A stretch of 48,046 nucleotides of DNA from Elusimicrobiota bacterium (GTDB taxonomy: Bacteria > Elusimicrobiota > Elusimicrobia > Elusimicrobiales > UBA9959), in assembly GCA_016209085.1 (NCBI GenBank), contig JACQWV010000078.1:1-48046 (forward strand). Direction: 5' to 3'. The notes below the pieces were generated by a model. The model made no database searches. It had not been told where the DNA came from and saw only the letters and a program-made list of their open reading frames with translations. Shown here piece by piece: positions 8,161 through 21,530 of the stretch (its first letter is position 1; every line of letters begins with the position of its first letter). A program made the translations under genes and the position numbers.

Positions 8161-9846
8161 ATGTACGAAAATCTTGCCACAAAATACAGGCCTAAAACTT
8201 TTGACGAAGTAATCGGCCAGGATTCCATTATCCATACCCTTTCCAACGCGCTCAAACTGGGAAGAATCGCTCATGCTTATCTGTTCTACGGCCCCAGGGG
8301 CTGCGGAAAAACGACTGTCGCAAGAATTCTCGCCAAATCCCTGAACTGTCATCATCCGAAAGACGGGAAACCCTGCAATAAGTGCGTTTCATGCCTTGAA
8401 ATCTCGGAAAGCAAATCCATTGACGTTCTTGAGATAGACGCCGCGTCAAACACGCAGGTGGATAAAGTCAGGGAAATTATAATAGAGAACGTGAATTTTA
8501 TTCCGGCTAGGGATAAGCGTAAAATATACATACTTGACGAAGTTCATATGCTCAGCGCCAGTTCTTTCAACGCCCTCCTGAAAACCGTTGAAGAGCCCCC
8601 TCCGCACGTGGTTTTTATGATGGCCACGACCGAGCATTCAAAAGTCCCGGCCACGATAGTTTCAAGATGCCAGGGATTCAGGTTCCGTCTGATACCGGAA
8701 GATTTAATAGTCGGAAGACTCAAAGATGCGGCCGAGAAGGAAAAACTCAAAACAGAGCCGGAAGCATTGAAAATTATCGCAAGATTTTCAGGCGGGGCAA
8801 TGAGAGACGCTCTGACAGTGCTTGACAGGGCCGCTTCTTTTACCGGCGGCAGGATTGACGCCGAATCAGTCAAAGAACTGCTCGGACTCGCAAAAGACGA
8901 TTTGATAAAGGAAATAATTACAGTCGTTCTGGAAAGGGACTTCCGCCGACTTCATAACAGCTTTGCAAAAATTTCAGCCGAAGGCTATGATGTCGGTCTT
9001 GTTCTCAGGGATATGAGAAACGCTTTCGCGGAAGCTTTTTTGTCGGGCCAGGGATTTTCAAAAACAGAAAGGCCTCTGATTAAGGAAATATGCGGATTGA
9101 AAAGCCCGGGCGTTTTTGCAAGGCTTGTCAGAAAAATGAATAAGATCATAGAAGAAACTAGATTTTCGGATAGTCCTGAAATGGCCGCTGAAACCGCTCT
9201 TTTTACCATTATGGAAATTCCTCTGGATTTGGAATCTCTTATAAAAAGACTTGAAACACTTGAGGAAAAGATTGATAAGAGGACAGATACCTTTTCAACC
9301 CCGCGGGTTGGAACTTCAACCCGCGGGGTTGGGGCGGCGGACAGGCAAGAACTCGCCGAAGGCGGACAGCCGGTTCAGCCCTGCAATCCTGGAATCTGGA
9401 AAAGACTGCTTGAGGCTATATCTTCCCAGAAACCGATGCTTTACAATATAATGCTTTCTTCAAAGGTTGATTTTAAAGATGATAAAACCTGGAAGTTTAT
9501 TTTTAAGGATAAATTCGGCGTTCAGACGCTTGAAAAATATAAAAAAGAAATTGAAGACCTGATCCAGCAGATTTCAGGAATGCAGGTGCGGATTTCGGCC
9601 GAGGAGGAGTCTTCAACGGATTTAAAGACGCACTTTGAAGAAATAGAGAACCCGTCAACCTCTGCGGAAACAGTTCAACCTGCCCCAACCCCGCGGGTTG
9701 GAACTTCAACCCGCGGGGTTGAAGGGGTACCGGAGGGTAAATGGGAGGACCTGTCTTCTTCAAGTTCTCCGGAGGGAGAAGGTGAAATAAAAAAACTCGT
9801 TAAAATCTTTCACGGCAAAATAACGAAAGTGAATAAAATAAAATGA
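8161..9846 (+). CDS. dnaX: DNA polymerase III subunit gamma/tau
   Basis: Clamp-loader ATPase of the replicative polymerase. Visible features are Walker A GPRGCGKTT (44-52), a four-Cys zinc site (C63, C72, C75, C78), Walker B YILDEVHM (D126, E127), VEEPPPHVVFMMATTE and the SRC motif with the arginine finger (about 168-170), followed by lid and collar helices. At 561 aa it is a typical tau-length protein; I saw no clear slippery site for a gamma form. The C-terminal linker carries two identical 12-codon palindromic insertions (TPRVGTSTRGV, codons at 9296-9331 and 9686-9721). The ATG follows the previous stop without a gap, and the stop overlaps recR by 4 nt (ATGA). Confidence 0.97.
   Translation: MYENLATKYRPKTFDEVIGQDSIIHTLSNALKLGRIAHAYLFYGPRGCGKTTVARILAKSLNCHHPKDGKPCNKCVSCLEISESKSIDVLEIDAASNTQVDKVREIIIENVNFIPARDKRKIYILDEVHMLSASSFNALLKTVEEPPPHVVFMMATTEHSKVPATIVSRCQGFRFRLIPEDLIVGRLKDAAEKEKLKTEPEALKIIARFSGGAMRDALTVLDRAASFTGGRIDAESVKELLGLAKDDLIKEIITVVLERDFRRLHNSFAKISAEGYDVGLVLRDMRNAFAEAFLSGQGFSKTERPLIKEICGLKSPGVFARLVRKMNKIIEETRFSDSPEMAAETALFTIMEIPLDLESLIKRLETLEEKIDKRTDTFSTPRVGTSTRGVGAADRQELAEGGQPVQPCNPGIWKRLLEAISSQKPMLYNIMLSSKVDFKDDKTWKFIFKDKFGVQTLEKYKKEIEDLIQQISGMQVRISAEEESSTDLKTHFEEIENPSTSAETVQPAPTPRVGTSTRGVEGVPEGKWEDLSSSSSPEGEGEIKKLVKIFHGKITKVNKIK
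9296..9331. repeat. In-frame 36-bp palindrome in dnaX, copy 1
   Basis: Arms caaccccgcgggttg (9296-9310) and caacccgcggggttg (9317-9331) are perfect inverted repeats around the loop gaactt. The reading frame of dnaX runs through it and it codes for a TPRVGTSTRGV-type peptide. It is identical to the copy at 9686-9721. Confidence 0.95.
9686..9721. repeat. In-frame 36-bp palindrome in dnaX, copy 2
   Basis: All 36 bases are identical to 9296-9331, 390 bp (130 codons) downstream and in the same frame. Recombination between the copies would remove 130 codons without shifting the frame. Confidence 0.95.
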
Positions 9847-10524: not shown

Positions 10525-12615
10525 GTGCATCTTTCCTATTACAGACGTCCTCTCTTTGTTTTTCTGATTTTTTACATATCATTTCTTGCTGTTTTCAAAA
10601 ACCGTTCAACGGGGCAGGTTGAATATCCGGCCTGCGGGGATGAAGAGGTTGAAATTGAGGGCAGAGTAGATACTTATCCCAGAAGAAGAGATAATGAATA
10701 TAGCTTTGTAATCTCAAGCCGCCGTGAAACGCATAAAAAGATTTTTGTCCATGCCGAAGCGCCTGTCCCGGCCGCTCGCGGAGCTCGCGGCACCGATTGC
10801 GGACAATGCCGCCCTGTCCCGCCGGGTTTTAAAGATAATGTAAAAATTTCTGGAACTTTAAGAAGGCCTTTCAGCTACGCTGTTCCGGGGAATCTGGACT
10901 GGAGAGAATATCTCAATAGAAGCGGAATAATGCGGGAGATGCGCGCTTCTTCCATAACGGTCGTTTCAGAGGCGAATTTTGTTTTTAAAACCGCAGGGTT
11001 TATCCGTTTCGCCGTTCTGGACTCTTTTGATTCAAGACTCAAGTCCCCTGAGCATTCGGCGATTTTGAGCGGGATAGTGCTGGGAGAAAAAAAACAGATC
11101 CCCAAAGAATTAAAGAAATCCTTTCAGGATTCCGGAGCCATGCACCTTCTGGTCGCTTCGGGCTCAAATGTCGGATTTATTACCTTTATCGTTTATTTTT
11201 TATGCGCCGCCATGGGGCTTAAAAAGAGAGTATCCGGAATTATCGGCTCAATTATAGCCGGACTTTATGTTCTTGCTGCCGGCCTTGACCCGCCTCTTGT
11301 AAGGGCATATCTGATGTTTATTTCGGCGCTGGCCGGTTTTATAATTGAAAGGGAATCAGGAGTGTTTCATGGACTCTTGATTTCGTGTTTTTTAATTACG
11401 GTTTATGCGCCTGATTCCGTGTCCGACGCCGGATTTCAAATGTCATTTCTGGCTACGCTCGGAATTGTAATAGGAATGGCAAATTACGGCAGATATGTTT
11501 CTTGCAATAAATTCAGCAGTTTTTGGGGAAAGATCCTCGGGATAATGATGATCAGTTTTTTTGCGCAGTCCGGCATATATCCTTTAATGGCTATTTATTT
11601 TCATAAGGTATCCGTAATTTCCATAGTCTCTAATCTGATTCTGGTGCCTCTGTCGGGGTTTTTGATGGCGCTCGGATTCTGTCTGGCCGTCTCTACGCAT
11701 ATTGCCGTTGTCGGAGATGTCTTTTCCGCCGCGACCGAATGGAGCGTATGGTTTTTTAAAATGATTGTGGAATTTTTCGGCAATTTAAAATTTTCTTCTA
11801 TTACAGCCGCTTCTCCTGGCTTTTTGGAGCTTTTTTCCTATTTTGGAATGATTTTTCTGATATGGAATCTGCCTTTATTCGGATTCAAAAATAAAAAAGT
11901 TTACTATTCGGGAGCGGCATTCGCCGTAATGTTCCTCATCGGAAGATTACTGCCTGAAAAGAGCGCAGTTTATCTGTTTTCCGACAAAGATTCCAATTGC
12001 GTCGTAATCAGGACTGATGAATGCGGTTTGTTCATGGTAAATCCCGGCGCCGCCGGAGAAAAACTGGCCAATGCCGTTCTGCATGCGGGCTTTAAAAAGG
12101 CGGACGCTGTTTTTCTCTCCTCTACGCATAAGAGTTCATGGAGCGGACTTGAAGAAATGTCGCAATTTATTGAAGTAAGGAAGATTTTTTTGCCGTTTGG
12201 TCCGGGAGGAGGGGAGTTGAAAAAATTTTTGGAACGTTTGCCCGGAACTGGAAAGACGATAGAACGGATGTGGCCGGGAGATAAAACTTTGGTGAATGAT
12301 TGCATCGTTCAGGCCAGATGGCCTTTGCAGATTTACCCCGTGGAATCCCGCTTTGCGGGAACCCCGCCGCAGGCGGGGTTATTTCACGGGGCGGGCAGAA
12401 GCATTGGATATGCGGGCCGCAATGAAACTATAGGATGGCTTTTTTCCTTTAAGGATTTTGAACTTGAAATTTCAAAAAAAGCGGATTTTGTAAGGATTCA
12501 TAAAACAAACAAAGCAGGAACTCCTGTATCCGGACGCGAAAAACGGGCAGAGTTTTATGACGTGTTTTCACAAAAAGGCGAAGTGAAGATATTTAATCCG
12601 CAGGGAGATTTATGA
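10525..12615 (+). CDS. comEC: ComEC/Rec2-family DNA uptake channel
   Basis: A 696-aa inner-membrane protein. It has an N-terminal membrane segment and soluble DUF4131-type domain, then the Competence domain recognised by GIVLGEKKQIPKEL followed by GAMHLLVASGSNVGFI and many membrane spans to about residue 480. The C-terminal part matches the position of the usual metallo-beta-lactamase-like domain, but the metal motif HxHxDH is replaced by STHKSSWSG, so it is probably not a metallo-enzyme. The start is a GTG at 10525 with a weak ribosome binding site. A palindromic element at 12336-12391 is inserted in frame (VESRFAGTPPQAGLFHGAG), and residues about 85-110 (Pro/Arg/Cys-rich) look like another insertion. 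ComM (37102-38637) is a second competence-linked gene in the window. Confidence 0.9.
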   Translation: MHLSYYRRPLFVFLIFYISFLAVFKNRSTGQVEYPACGDEEVEIEGRVDTYPRRRDNEYSFVISSRRETHKKIFVHAEAPVPAARGARGTDCGQCRPVPPGFKDNVKISGTLRRPFSYAVPGNLDWREYLNRSGIMREMRASSITVVSEANFVFKTAGFIRFAVLDSFDSRLKSPEHSAILSGIVLGEKKQIPKELKKSFQDSGAMHLLVASGSNVGFITFIVYFLCAAMGLKKRVSGIIGSIIAGLYVLAAGLDPPLVRAYLMFISALAGFIIERESGVFHGLLISCFLITVYAPDSVSDAGFQMSFLATLGIVIGMANYGRYVSCNKFSSFWGKILGIMMISFFAQSGIYPLMAIYFHKVSVISIVSNLILVPLSGFLMALGFCLAVSTHIAVVGDVFSAATEWSVWFFKMIVEFFGNLKFSSITAASPGFLELFSYFGMIFLIWNLPLFGFKNKKVYYSGAAFAVMFLIGRLLPEKSAVYLFSDKDSNCVVIRTDECGLFMVNPGAAGEKLANAVLHAGFKKADAVFLSSTHKSSWSGLEEMSQFIEVRKIFLPFGPGGGELKKFLERLPGTGKTIERMWPGDKTLVNDCIVQARWPLQIYPVESRFAGTPPQAGLFHGAGRSIGYAGRNETIGWLFSFKDFELEISKKADFVRIHKTNKAGTPVSGREKRAEFYDVFSQKGEVKIFNPQGDL
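12336..12391. repeat. Cloverleaf palindromic element inside comEC
   Basis: Outer arms ccccgtggaat (12336-12346) and atttcacgggg (12381-12391, one mismatch) enclose cccgc-ttt-gcggg (12347-12359) and aaccccgcc-gca-ggcggggtt (12360-12380). The plan matches the intergenic element at 6296-6353, and the comEC frame stays open across it. Confidence 0.9.
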
Positions 12616-18070: not shown

Positions 18071-18985
18071 ATGCTGCGTTCAATTTTAACCTGGTGGAGA
18101 ATTGGCTTGCCGACACGTCAAATTAATGTCTTCTGCATTGTCCTACTAAGGCGCTCCCATCCTTGTAAAGCTTTTTTATCCTTTCTCCTCTTGCTCTTCG
18201 CATCCTCCTCCGTTACGGCTCAACTCCTCCAACCCAAACAACAGAGCGAAAGGTATAAAGCCAACCTTGAACAAATTCTTGCCAATCAGAACTGGAAGTT
18301 ACGCCCTGAAAACGATTTTATAAAAAGGTTTCAAAGACGAGAACACTTCCTTGTAATTATCGACTATATTCTTTCGCTACCGGAAGATGAAATTGATATC
18401 TGGAAAGTTTCCCTCACGATGGCCGGGGATGCGTATCCCGACATTGACATGAAGTATTTTACCGAGGAATTTGAAGCCATCGTTAACAGGGCAAAAGATA
18501 TGACGCCGCCAGACGCTTCTCCGGACGTGCGTATCCGGACACTCAACACGCTTTTTTACAAAAGGATGGAAATCAACTACGACAAAACTGATTACATGGG
18601 CAAGAAAATTATCAACCGTTATATTTTTGGCGTCGTCGAAACGGGAGCCGGCACTTGCGCCAATCTCGCCGCATTCTATATTTCCGTCGCCAAACGGCTT
18701 GGCTACCCGGTTTATGCAGTAGCCGCGCCGCAACATCTCTTCGCGCGTTATATAGATCCCAGTCTGGATAGACAGAATATCGACCCGACAGGCAAGGGTG
18801 GATGGTCCTCAGACGAGGAATACATCCGAGATATGGAAATACCACAAAAAGCCATCGACAACGGCGTCTACCTGCGGACCATGACAAACAAAGAACTGGC
18901 CGCTGAACTGATTGCAGACCATAGCGCTTCGGGCCTAAAATCCCTAACTGGGGGGAGCCTGGCGCACAGTGGAATGGATGGATAG
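18071..18985 (+). CDS. Exported transglutaminase-like protein, 3' end probably replaced
   Basis: A 304-aa product. After an atypical 35-residue start comes a signal-like segment (AFLSFLLLLFASSSVTAQ). The core resembles SirB1-type transglutaminase-like proteins, with a candidate catalytic Cys in ETGAGTCANLAAFYISVAKR, His in AAPQHLFARY and Asp in the following IDP. The true start may lie nearer the signal peptide at a non-ATG codon. Homologues usually continue beyond ELIADHSASG, often into TPR repeats; here the frame runs into about 15 unrelated residues and stops, so the gene looks truncated or fused at about 18925. The flanks become AT-rich and unrecognised, suggesting an acquired or rearranged patch. 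Confidence 0.65.
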   Translation: MLRSILTWWRIGLPTRQINVFCIVLLRRSHPCKAFLSFLLLLFASSSVTAQLLQPKQQSERYKANLEQILANQNWKLRPENDFIKRFQRREHFLVIIDYILSLPEDEIDIWKVSLTMAGDAYPDIDMKYFTEEFEAIVNRAKDMTPPDASPDVRIRTLNTLFYKRMEINYDKTDYMGKKIINRYIFGVVETGAGTCANLAAFYISVAKRLGYPVYAVAAPQHLFARYIDPSLDRQNIDPTGKGGWSSDEEYIRDMEIPQKAIDNGVYLRTMTNKELAAELIADHSASGLKSLTGGSLAHSGMDG

Positions 18986-19017
18986 ATTGGATACGCAAGG
19001 GAGCGCTTTTCAAATAG
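18925..19017 (+). other. Short Trp-rich open frame at the truncation point
   Basis: In the frame beginning right after a stop at 18922-18924, a 30-codon stretch reads RFGPKIPNWGEPGAQWNGW and continues with five tryptophans in all. It overlaps the ends of the two neighbouring frames and has no start codon. It could be the remnant of another gene's C-terminus or chance. Confidence 0.2.
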
Positions 19018-19610
19018 CTATGACAAAACTAAAGGTATTACAGACACTGGTTCAAGAACGATACCAAATCGGAGGGGAGATAGGGAAATACTCGCTGTAT
19101 CACTACTTTCAAGGTTCGGATTGGTCTAACGAAGAACGTCTTTTGGGTTTACAGTGTTTATGCAATGCGTTGGCTTCATTATCACAAAAAGCTCGGATTA
19201 TTCATCTCTATTACCATCATCTAACGATATGGCGCATCAACAAAGTAAAGCAACAGGCGCCTTTTCTAAAGGGAGAGTTAAATATCACAAGCGGAAGTTT
19301 TTTACGAAAACACCTACATCTTACAACTTTATATGCCGTGGACGTTAAGCAAATTATTGAACGGTTTTTTATGAACGAAGATGATATTTATTTAAGGATT
19401 TATGAACCTAGTGTCACAATTAATGAATACAAGAAATCCACACCCTCCTATTATTTACAATCTTTTCCCTTGGCACAGATTGTCTGTTTTATGTCCATAA
19501 AACCTTTTGATATTGAACTTATTGGCAAGCCAGAAATAGTGAAGAATCTTGTTGACATAATGGATAAAGAAATTCATACAGCGAACTTTGGCGTTTTTAT
19601 AAATGAATAA
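18969..19610 (+). CDS. Unrecognised protein
   Basis: A 213-aa frame that overlaps the end of the transglutaminase-like gene by 17 nt. I recognise no domain. The N-terminal third is helical (IAMTKLKVLQTLVQERY); the C-terminal part has mixed beta and helix (LIGKPEIVKNLVDIMDKEI). Base use is more AT-rich than in the housekeeping genes on both sides. The ATG at 18969 has no good ribosome binding site. With the next small gene it may form a pair, for example an effector/immunity remnant, but nothing in the sequence proves that. Confidence 0.5.
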   Translation: MEWMDRLDTQGSAFQIAMTKLKVLQTLVQERYQIGGEIGKYSLYHYFQGSDWSNEERLLGLQCLCNALASLSQKARIIHLYYHHLTIWRINKVKQQAPFLKGELNITSGSFLRKHLHLTTLYAVDVKQIIERFFMNEDDIYLRIYEPSVTINEYKKSTPSYYLQSFPLAQIVCFMSIKPFDIELIGKPEIVKNLVDIMDKEIHTANFGVFINE

Positions 19611-19618
19611 CTCTAAAA

Positions 19619-20032
19619 ATGAAACGAAATATATCCGTAGAAATTCCAATTAATTCAAAAGATGCCTCTCGGCGAGGATTAGATCTTTCGCTTTGTAAAT
19701 TAGTGATCAGTTTTAGCGGAATAGAGAAACAAAACTTTTTAGAATTGGCACGATTGCTTAGCGAATTACTATCATTATGGCAAGCCGAAGCCTTGGTTAT
19801 TTTCTTTGCCAATGAAAAATTGGCTCATAAAATTATTTCCGATCTGCCATCATTGGAGCCTAGGTGGTGGACATTATCTAAAACAAATTATGAAATTCCA
19901 TTTCTAAAACAGCTCACACTATCTGACCCATTCTTGTTTTTCTCTCCAAGTCATATGTCTTTAGAAATTTTGGGCTCTCGAAATCAAATAACTCGTCTTA
20001 AAATATTGACAGACCAGGGTTCTTTAGATTAA
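19619..20032 (+). CDS. Unrecognised small protein
   Basis: A 137-aa protein starting 8 nt after the preceding stop, so probably co-transcribed. It has no recognisable motif. Residues about 30-75 alternate helix and beta (LELARLLSELLSLWQAEALV). It is AT-rich like its neighbour. From its stop at 20032 to about 20228 there are roughly 200 nt in which I see no gene. Confidence 0.5.
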   Translation: MKRNISVEIPINSKDASRRGLDLSLCKLVISFSGIEKQNFLELARLLSELLSLWQAEALVIFFANEKLAHKIISDLPSLEPRWWTLSKTNYEIPFLKQLTLSDPFLFFSPSHMSLEILGSRNQITRLKILTDQGSLD

Positions 20033-20228
20033 TCCATATGACGAGACTAAGAGTTTCTTGAACACCCTCGGCCACTGATCTCCCCGGTTTTACGCGCCAT
20101 ATGTAGGTTTAAGTCTCCAAAACACTCACCAATAATAGGGCACGATTTAAACGCTTTCCATGACCCTAAAAACACCCTTTGAAACTGGCAATTATCCTTT
20201 TTCAGCCGTATGGAGTGCAAAATATTGA

Positions 20229-20354
20229 CCCCGTTAGAGATACACCGATGAAAGCGTCAATTACAAATGCTGAAAACATTCAAATTATAGAAGGTCAAAC
20301 AAAAGACTCATTACAGAGCACGGTCGTGCAAGCACGACCTATCTCTAACGGGGT
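20229..20354. mobile_element. Small inverted-repeat element next to the hrcA promoter (MITE-like)
   Basis: accccgttagagat (20229-20242) and atctctaacggggt (20341-20354) are perfect 14-bp inverted ends of a 126-bp segment. Inside the right end lies a second hairpin, gtcgtg-caag-cacgac (about 20326-20341). The last base of the right end is the first T of the hrcA -35 box, so the element touches the promoter. No transposase is encoded; transposition is inferred only from the shape. Confidence 0.6.
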
Positions 20355-20382
20355 TGACACTCTTATTTCGATGAGATATAAT
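20354..20382 (+). promoter_or_regulatory. Consensus sigma-70 promoter of the hrcA operon
   Basis: ttgaca (20354-20359), 17-nt spacer, tataat (20377-20382): both hexamers match consensus exactly and the spacing is ideal. Transcription should begin near 20389, inside the CIRCE operator, giving a leader of about 30 nt before hrcA. Confidence 0.92.
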
Positions 20383-20386
20383 ATTA

Positions 20387-20413
20387 TTAGCAGTCTAAGC
20401 CATGGATTGCTAA
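20387..20413 (+). promoter_or_regulatory. CIRCE operator (HrcA binding site)
   Basis: TTAGCAGTC (20387-20395), 9-nt spacer, GATTGCTAA (20405-20413). The known CIRCE consensus is TTAGCACTC-N9-GAGTGCTAA; this site keeps the 9-nt spacing and the outer six bases of each arm, and differs from the consensus at one base per arm. Its place just after the -10 box and 7 nt before the hrcA ATG is what HrcA autoregulation requires. Confidence 0.9.
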
Positions 20414-20420
20414 TTATTTT

Positions 20421-21530
20421 ATGAGAGTCTTGAAACCGCAGGAAGCGCAAAAGAGAAAGGAAAAAGTTCTGAATTGGGCGATATATAATTATGTTGTTTC
20501 ATGCCGGCCAATAAGCTCGGAAATGGTTGCGGAAAGCGGAGATTTTGACATTTCAAGCGCTACGATAAGGAACATCCTCAAAGAGCTTGAAGAGAGCGGA
20601 TATCTGCATCAGATGCACACCTCGGGCGGCAGAGTTCCTACTGATAAAGGATACAGGTCGTATGTGAATTACATAATGGACATCCAGAAGGCCGTTTCAG
20701 TTGAAAAAGAAAAGGTTATGAACGAGTATGACAGGAAAATAGAACAGTTTGACATTCTCCTGAAGCAGACTTCCAGAATTCTCTCAAACCTGTCAAAATG
20801 CGCCGGATTTGTAATGTCGGCCGATATTGAGGACGATTCAATAAGGAAAATAGACCTTATCTGGCTTAAGCAGAGAAGTTTTCTGATGATAATACTCATG
20901 CATTCGGGCATCATCCGCCATGTTCCGTTTATTCTTGATTCAGTAATAGACAAAAAGGCGCTTGCTTTGTTTTCATCGGAGCTGAACAAACATGTAAAAG
21001 ACGTCCCTTTATCAGACGTCGCCGGAATAATATGGGATTTTTCTCTGAAGAATTCAGCCAAACAGCATTACGAAGCGATAGCGGAAAAGATATACGAATA
21101 TTTTTATAAATCGAGCGACCAGAGCGAATCCGTTTATCTGGAAGGCCTGGGCAAAATCACCGAATGCATGGAGGAAGACGGCATTCAGGATTTTAAAAAC
21201 ATAATTAAAATTCTGGAGGAAAAAGAAAGATTCCGGGCCATGCTTCAGGAAAGGCTTAAGGCCTGCAGCGAGAAAAAGAAAAAAATCACCGGCGATAAAA
21301 CAAGTCATGCCGTGGAGGTTACCATCGGTTCTGAAAACGACATGAGAGAATTCAAGAACTTCAGCGTTGTTTCCTCGTCTTACTGCATAAAGAACAGACC
21401 GGTCGGCCTTGTGGGCATACTGGGATACAAGAGAATGGAATATCCGAAAATGATTTCAATAGTGGATACGGTAAGCTGCATGATAGAGGATATATTGTCG
21501 GAATGGGAAGATTTTCACATAGAGGACTAA
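20421..21530 (+). CDS. hrcA: Heat-inducible transcription repressor HrcA
   Basis: Repressor of class I heat-shock genes, whose folding and DNA binding depend on chaperonin in studied bacteria. The 369-aa protein is slightly longer than the usual 340 or so. The N-terminal winged helix is clear (residues about 15-75: YNYVVSCRPISSEMVAE, SSATIRNILKELEESGYL, HTSGGRVPTDKGYRSYV). The GAF-like dimerisation part includes a Lys-rich KKKKITGDK insertion, and the C-terminus keeps the family GLVGILGYKRMEYPKMISIVD ending. It leads the hrcA-grpE-dnaK-dnaJ operon and is preceded by its own operator. The ribosome binding site is weak, in line with a repressor needed at low level. Confidence 0.95.
   Translation: MRVLKPQEAQKRKEKVLNWAIYNYVVSCRPISSEMVAESGDFDISSATIRNILKELEESGYLHQMHTSGGRVPTDKGYRSYVNYIMDIQKAVSVEKEKVMNEYDRKIEQFDILLKQTSRILSNLSKCAGFVMSADIEDDSIRKIDLIWLKQRSFLMIILMHSGIIRHVPFILDSVIDKKALALFSSELNKHVKDVPLSDVAGIIWDFSLKNSAKQHYEAIAEKIYEYFYKSSDQSESVYLEGLGKITECMEEDGIQDFKNIIKILEEKERFRAMLQERLKACSEKKKKITGDKTSHAVEVTIGSENDMREFKNFSVVSSSYCIKNRPVGLVGILGYKRMEYPKMISIVDTVSCMIEDILSEWEDFHIED

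What the first reader, a model, noticed from the sequence alone, without database searches (positions are those of the whole stretch)
20229..20413. MITE-like element abutting a perfect promoter and CIRCE site
A 126-bp segment with perfect 14-bp inverted ends stops exactly where the hrcA -35 box begins; its terminal T is the first base of ttgaca. The promoter is a full consensus and the CIRCE variant follows at once. The insertion may have created or strengthened the chaperone promoter.
Basis: partly seen in the sequence, partly recalled or inferred. Interest (0 to 1): 0.55.

Follow-up and report, generated by a model that had tools for sequence, protein, structure and literature searches.

The report
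Mini-transposon inside hrcA promoter box
A 125-bp mobile DNA element jumped into the existing "on-switch" of a heat-shock gene without breaking it, and it belongs to a widespread family of tiny bacterial elements whose only gene, when they carry one, is a small GIY-YIG DNA-cutting enzyme rather than any known transposase.

Summary
A 125-bp palindromic element (20229-20353) abuts a consensus promoter and CIRCE-like operator before hrcA.

It is a MITE: 52 paired copies were extracted from this genome, 29 with an exact 4-bp target duplication (shuffled mean 5.9, maximum 14 in 10,000). Here the duplication is TTGA, so the empty site already read TTGACA. In 46 of 49 relatives the same promoter and operator occur, none of those 46 with the element within 200 bp. 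The insertion split an existing -35 box and its duplication healed it; it did not create the promoter. Five of 52 copies sit this way in -35 boxes, against 0 of 1921 random positions.

More interesting is what moves it. The same termini flank a single-domain GIY-YIG nuclease gene in 14 of 21 elements of 245-305 bp, in 11 genomes of several phyla. Variant termini are shared between nuclease elements and MITEs within one genome. I saw no opposed termini 0.6-3.5 kb apart among the listed places.

I infer a GIY-YIG-driven mini-transposon class. Many copies also lie in frame inside genes, as Rickettsia palindromic elements do. Catalysis by the nuclease is inferred, not shown.

The parts
20225..20228 (.). 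left copy of 4-bp target duplication (TTGA)
20229..20353 (+). 125-bp MITE core CCCCGTTAGAGA...TCTCTAACGGGG
20229..20242 (+). left terminal inverted repeat CCCCGTTAGAGATA
20322..20339 (+). subterminal stem-loop GGTCGTGC-AA-GCACGACC with compensatory changes among copies
20340..20353 (-). right terminal inverted repeat TATCTCTAACGGGG
20354..20357 (.). right copy of target duplication (TTGA), which is also the first four bases of the -35 box
20354..20359 (+). -35 box TTGACA of the hrcA promoter, ancestral
20377..20382 (+). -10 box TATAAT
20386..20414 (+). CIRCE-like operator ATTAGCAGTC-N9-GATTGCTAAT
20421..21530 (+). hrcA
12335..12391 (+). second, related palindromic element (GTGAAAT-type ends), in frame inside a long ComEC-like ORF 10525-12615

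Best explanation
The segment is a non-autonomous mini-transposon (MITE) that inserted into the -35 hexamer of an already existing hrcA promoter. Insertion duplicated 4 bp (TTGA), so the copy next to the downstream CA restored TTGACA and the promoter survived; only the DNA upstream of -35 changed. It belongs to a cross-phylum family of palindromic elements with ends CCCCGTTAGARAT and 4-bp target duplications. The coding members are about 280 bp long and carry one gene, a single-domain GIY-YIG nuclease, between the same ends. Inferred step: this nuclease recognises the ends (perhaps as folded hairpins), cuts the ends and the target with a 4-nt stagger, and moves both its own element and the MITEs in trans. 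Shown from sequence: the ends, target duplications, family, GIY-YIG gene between the ends, matching of variant ends, purifying selection on the nuclease. Not shown: catalysis, the strand chemistry, and current activity.
For: Target duplication: 29 of 52 copies exact at 4 bp, 0 at 5 bp, shuffled mean 5.9, maximum 14. Ancestral promoter: 46 of 49 relatives have it, none of these 46 with the element's end within 200 bp. Recurrent -35 insertion: 5 of 52 copies, each upstream of an ORF, against 0 of 1921 random positions and 22 of 2001 TTGA / 3 of 1111 CTTG positions. GIY-YIG between identical ends: 14 of 21 elements of 245-305 bp in 11 of 49 MITE-bearing genomes; exact 4-bp duplication in 6 of 14. 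End co-variation: own genome CCCCGTGAAAT on a 280-bp GIY-YIG element and on 55- and 58-bp MITEs; genome G119 CCCCGTAGAGAAATTTCGAA..TTCGAAATTCTTCTACGGGG on a GIY-YIG element and on MITEs of 66-145 bp. Nuclease residues Y3, Y5, Y16, G18, R26, H30, E62 invariant in 11 of 11 aligned proteins; differences per codon position 0.319, 0.208, 0.554 over 36 pairs; confident GIY-YIG fold, pLDDT 90.6, best PDB match UPF0213 1zg2, then Slx1.
Against: No GIY-YIG element with exactly the TTAGARAT ends was found in the window's own genome (PF01541 search); its GIY-YIG genes have variant or other flanks, so the partner there may be lost, diverged or in an assembly gap. About half the copies (23 of 52; 8 of 14 GIY-YIG elements) lack an exact 4-bp duplication. 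Single-domain GIY-YIG proteins of this size have no proven transposase role, and no 4-nt staggered cut is known to me for GIY-YIG enzymes (recalled). No genome of the same genus was available, so no empty site at this locus from a near relative was seen. In one search only 12 of 28 analysable GIY-YIG genes had inverted-repeat flanks beyond the random maximum, so the link holds for some clades, not for all GIY-YIG genes.
Confidence: 0.75

Rival explanations
1. The GIY-YIG gene is a passenger: an unknown conventional transposase, not coded by any element seen here, moves both the MITEs and the GIY-YIG elements by their shared ends.
For: Exact short target duplications and terminal inverted repeats are typical of DDE transposons (established knowledge). 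The own genome has TTAGARAT MITEs but no GIY-YIG element with those ends was found.
Against: End types co-vary between GIY-YIG elements and MITEs in the same genome in two variant systems besides the main one. In the own genome with up to one mismatch and in listed places of G101, G108 and part of G104 I saw no opposed ends 0.6-3.5 kb apart that were not parts of shorter pairs. GIY-YIG sequence is conserved by selection across phyla.
Confidence: 0.2
2. One reading: the insertion created the hrcA promoter by bringing or completing the -35 box.
For: The element end and -35 box abut exactly, with no base between.
Against: TTGA is target duplication, so the empty site has TTGACA; 46 of 49 relatives have the promoter, none of the 46 with the element.
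Confidence: 0.03
3. The insertion changed hrcA regulation by displacing an upstream HrcA half-site (TTAGCAGTC about 11 nt before -35), loosening autoregulation.
For: The half-site is present in 41 of 46 relatives with the promoter and not recognisable in the window.
Against: Five element-free relatives also lack it, among them G008, which shares the MITE family; so it may have been lost first. No expression data.
Confidence: 0.2
4. The repeat is a REP-type sequence moved by a RAYT (HUH tyrosine) transposase.
For: A conserved short motif followed by a variable stem-loop resembles REP layout.
Against: Exact 4-bp target duplications and two-ended inverted repeats; the gene found between the ends is GIY-YIG.
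Confidence: 0.03

Closest known systems
Rickettsia palindromic elements (RPE)
   Same: Palindromic repeats of about 70-150 bp with ends of about 12 bp that lie in frame inside conserved protein genes (RPE features from passages of PMC2229807 and PMC10969869; here)
   Different: Different ends and hosts; 4-bp target duplication is clear here, whereas PMC2229807 marks it '?' for RPE; no mobilising enzyme is named for RPE in the passages read, here a GIY-YIG partner is proposed
IS-derived MITEs such as RUP and Correia
   Same: Terminal inverted repeats, target duplication, many non-coding copies, effects at promoters
   Different: 4-bp rather than TA duplication; partner gene is a nuclease of another fold; this element leaves a promoter intact rather than bringing one
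Free-standing GIY-YIG homing endonucleases (I-TevI type)
   Same: GIY-YIG nuclease as selfish gene
   Different: Here inside a unit with terminal inverted repeats, scattered targets, target duplications and non-coding derivatives; the protein is 86 aa, little more than the nuclease domain
UPF0213 / Slx1 GIY-YIG proteins
   Same: Fold and active-site pattern
   Different: No mobility known to me (recalled); Slx1 is a structure-specific nuclease with partner Slx4
Penelope-like retroelements
   Same: Use a GIY-YIG domain in mobility
   Different: Joined to a reverse transcriptase, eukaryotic, far longer (recalled; listing)

Membership tests
MITE | many short non-coding copies with terminal inverted repeats | tested here: met
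   52 paired copies in the own genome
MITE | target site duplication | tested here: met
   29 of 52 exact 4 bp, shuffled mean 5.9
MITE | autonomous relative with the same ends | tested here: inconclusive
   GIY-YIG-coding elements with the same ends in other genomes, 14 of 21; that they are autonomous was not tested
Rickettsia palindromic element (works like) | in-frame insertion in conserved protein genes | tested here: met
   18 of 52 copies inside long open frames; AnmK of 24 matched relatives lacks the 43-aa insert, both parts listed for 23
Rickettsia palindromic element (member) | RPE sequence family of Rickettsiales | not tested
   no RPE sequence was fetched or aligned; host is Elusimicrobiota by kin
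DDE insertion-sequence derivative | IS with the same ends in the genome | tested here: inconclusive
   none seen among listed ends in the own genome, G101, G108 and part of G104
REP/RAYT | HUH transposase gene flanked by the repeats, no target duplication | tested here: inconclusive
   two-ended repeats with 4-bp duplication argue against it; RAYT genes were not searched for
GIY-YIG nuclease | Y..Y / YxG / R / H / E active-site pattern and fold | tested here: met
   invariant in 11 of 11 aligned, PF01541, fold
Homing endonuclease element | insertion at one cognate allele | tested here: not met
   scattered, varied targets
CIRCE / HrcA operator | 9-bp inverted repeat with 9-bp spacer near the hrcA promoter | tested here: met
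   variant of the recalled consensus TTAGCACTC-N9-GAGTGCTAA

The most novel reading that the evidence does not exclude
A new class of DNA transposon: units of about 280 bp with terminal inverted repeats and 4-bp target duplications, whose sole enzyme is an 86-aa single-domain GIY-YIG nuclease, spread over Elusimicrobiota, Omnitrophota, Ratteibacteria and several Patescibacteria. It drives large MITE populations that settle harmlessly in frame inside genes and inside -35 boxes that the duplication restores.
Probability: 0.68. Interest if true: 0.9.

Novelty: categorically new. Interest (0 to 1): 0.8.

Why it matters
The enzymes known to me that move DNA transposons are of a few folds (DDE, HUH, serine and tyrosine recombinases, Cas1; recalled). 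A GIY-YIG nuclease of 86 residues doing this would add a fold and would be among the smallest self-moving units. [quoted passage not shown] The -35 result shows a way for insertions into promoters to be neutral.

Tried and rejected
A long autonomous IS was sought: a 2.56-kb pair of ends on C108 turned out to be two separate short elements around an unrelated ORF, and ORFs between distant ends in L195, L196 and L209 were not transposases; L196 instead revealed the GIY-YIG element. An Rfam scan gave only Twister-sister at 17.4 bits against a gathering score of 34, rejected. A viral-contig scan for the GIY-YIG-length element found 0. attC sites were considered and dropped because the repeats point the wrong way and a 4-bp duplication is present (recalled definition, no call). 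The idea that the flanking TAA/TGA of the target always gives the nuclease its stop codon was dropped: 4 of 10 ORFs end at +3, 2 end inside the element, 4 run on. Co-variation for the C140 GIY-YIG gene (CCCCGTTTCCAAAC beside CCCCGTTCCAAAT elements) was not counted, since only one end was found. Rows left out of counts: 7 of 35 loci gave no analysable ORF; the element of L196/L283 appears twice and is counted once. Papers: ten searches. In their listings (titles, start of abstracts) I saw no paper describing a prokaryotic GIY-YIG element with terminal repeats; most listed papers were not opened, and the library lacks most subscription papers and bioRxiv. Opened for passages only: PMC10969869, PMC3733652, PMC2229807, PMC1564403.

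Full report
Observation. The described features are all present at the stated place. Arms of 15 nt are perfect, the promoter is a 12 of 12 match, the operator and hrcA follow. The arms' outermost A and T turn out to be target DNA: TTGA|CCCC...GGGG|TTGA.

Family in the own genome. A nucleotide search found many copies of the 125-bp type and a second set of 71-74 bp. From the loci fetched I extracted 52 paired copies. Exact 4-bp direct repeats flank 29 of 52; none extends to 5 bp; shuffling the right flanks gave a mean of 5.9 and a maximum of 14 in 10,000. Targets are mostly TTTA/TAAA, with TTGA, CTTG, TTCA, CACG, CGGA and others. Eighteen 125-type copies aligned show a subterminal stem-loop in which 6 of 8 pairs change on both sides, so the hairpin form is kept.

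The promoter question. No same-genus genome was held. Of 49 relatives whose hrcA upstream region was examined (34 same family, 15 same order), 46 have TTGACA (at most one mismatch) - 16-18 nt - TATAAT (at most one mismatch) plus operator, and none of the 46 has the element's end within 200 nt upstream. Of the three misses, one is a contig end (G032), one (G021) has TTGACA and TAAAAT with a weaker operator, and one (G015) lacks TTGACA. Thus the box is ancestral. The duplication explains why it survived: the right TTGA plus the original CA is TTGACA again. The same happened elsewhere: with -35 starting within 3 nt of an element end and at least 10 of 12 promoter matches there are 5 cases among 104 flanks (5 of 52 copies), 0 among 1921 random positions, and 22 of 2001 and 3 of 1111 at positions with the same 4-mer TTGA or CTTG. 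All five have an ORF downstream, among them hrcA and a dapB-like ORF (my reading of the translation). Whether this is target choice or survival of harmless insertions is open; an intergenic-only control was not run.

In-frame copies. Core plus 4 bp is a multiple of three in 38 of 52 copies (copies of one subfamily are not independent). By a mechanical test 18 of 52 copies lie inside open frames with at least 30 codons on each side; some of these frames may be spurious (the C108:4755 and L008 cases). Families matched in the 11 different proteins scanned include AnmK, ObgE, RimO (two copies in one gene), Mfd, an ABC-2 permease and PheT. For AnmK, 24 of 25 relatives searched had a match, and for 23 of these both parts around the 43-aa insert are listed as neighbouring pieces without it. 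A second element in this window (12335-12391) lies in frame in a ComEC-like ORF (name from my reading of the translation).

Beyond this genome. A pattern for the 125-type was found in 4 of 59 genomes of the same family, the own one included. Coordinates of L185, L188 and L241 equal those of G008, G013 and G015, which places the window's family in Elusimicrobiota.

The partner gene. In L196 a 280-bp unit with these ends and duplication TAAA carries a GIY-YIG gene. In 49 MITE-bearing genomes, units of 245-305 bp with exact ends occur 21 times in 17 genomes; 14 of 21, in 11 genomes (G101 Ratteibacteria, G108 Elusimicrobia, G104 unnamed, G111 and G114 Omnitrophota, G110 Terry-, G090 Jorgensen-, G089 Buchanan-, G084 Uhr-, G119 Nealson-, G091 Portnoybacteria), hold GIY-YIG sequence, at least three of them decayed (L290, L293, L295). 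In the other 7 I saw no GIY-YIG sequence; at least some look like nested or adjacent short elements. Exact 4-bp duplications flank 6 of the 14.

Co-variation of ends. In the own genome, ends CCCCGTGAAAT occur 12 times: among them on a 280-bp GIY-YIG unit (flanks TTTA/TGAA, no exact duplication) and on paired MITEs of 55 and 58 bp. In G119 a GIY-YIG gene has the asymmetric ends CCCCGTAGAGAAATTTCGAA / TTCGAAATTCTTCTACGGGG and the search for that end gave 18 places; of the 16 loci examined (two of them the same element from both sides, one the GIY-YIG unit itself) most are MITEs of 61-145 bp with these or close ends, many with exact duplications such as TATG. So each end type tested has both a nuclease unit and MITEs, except that the own genome lacks a nuclease unit with exact TTAGARAT ends.

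The protein. Eleven proteins aligned over 86 columns share invariant Y3, Y5, Y16, G18, R26, H30 and E62. Over 36 pairs, differences per codon position are 0.319, 0.208 and 0.554, as under purifying selection. The model is confident and the nearest solved structures are UPF0213 1zg2 and Slx1, then, weakly, I-TevI. In 8 of 10 units the ORF has no stop of its own and runs out through the terminal repeat.

Mechanism. Shown: an inserted, repeated element with 4-bp duplications, a pre-existing promoter kept intact, and a conserved GIY-YIG gene framed by the same, co-varying ends. Inferred: that the nuclease is the mobilising enzyme. Slx1-like action on branched or hairpin DNA is a natural guess, since the ends can fold; the 4-nt stagger is unexplained. 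The main rival is a passenger gene with an unseen transposase (0.2).

Generality. A second GIY-YIG clade in the own genome and in G114 is flanked by quite different palindromes (TTGCGAG..., GAAGCAATC..., GTCACTCCTGCC...). This hints that several prokaryotic palindromic repeats may have GIY-YIG partners; it was not followed up.

Noticed in passing
window 12335-12391: A second palindromic element, ends CCCCGTGGAATCC / GGTTATTTCACGGGG, lies in frame inside a 696-aa ComEC-like ORF; same end type as a GIY-YIG element elsewhere in this genome.
   Followed up: partly
window 9299-9328 and 9689-9718: Two near-identical 30-bp palindromes CCCCGCGGGTTGGAAC...ACTTCAACCCGCGGGG about 390 bp apart.
   Followed up: no
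L062-L090 and L143-L162, hrcA upstream: A half-site TTAGCA[CG]TC lies about 11 nt before -35 in 41 of 46 relatives, suggesting a second, degenerate HrcA operator over the -35 box.
   Followed up: partly
L081 (G015), hrcA upstream: A relative has another short inverted-repeat unit (CCCCGTTAAAT... / ...ATTTAACTGGG, flanks TTCA/TAAA) upstream of hrcA, and no TTGACA there.
   Followed up: no
L278, L279, L322: A second clade of single-domain GIY-YIG genes is flanked by other palindromes (GTCACTCCTGCCCC, GAAGCAATCC, CCGTCATTGCGAG).
   Followed up: no
L196:2084-2821: The GIY-YIG frame runs through the element end into a pilin-like gene, and nearby pilin-like ORFs have the element-end peptide SLTGF next to their GFT.LE motif.
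   Followed up: no
window 18071-20032: Three ORFs between the gltX side and hrcA (304 aa transglutaminase-like, 213 aa, 137 aa), the last two without Pfam match.
   Followed up: no
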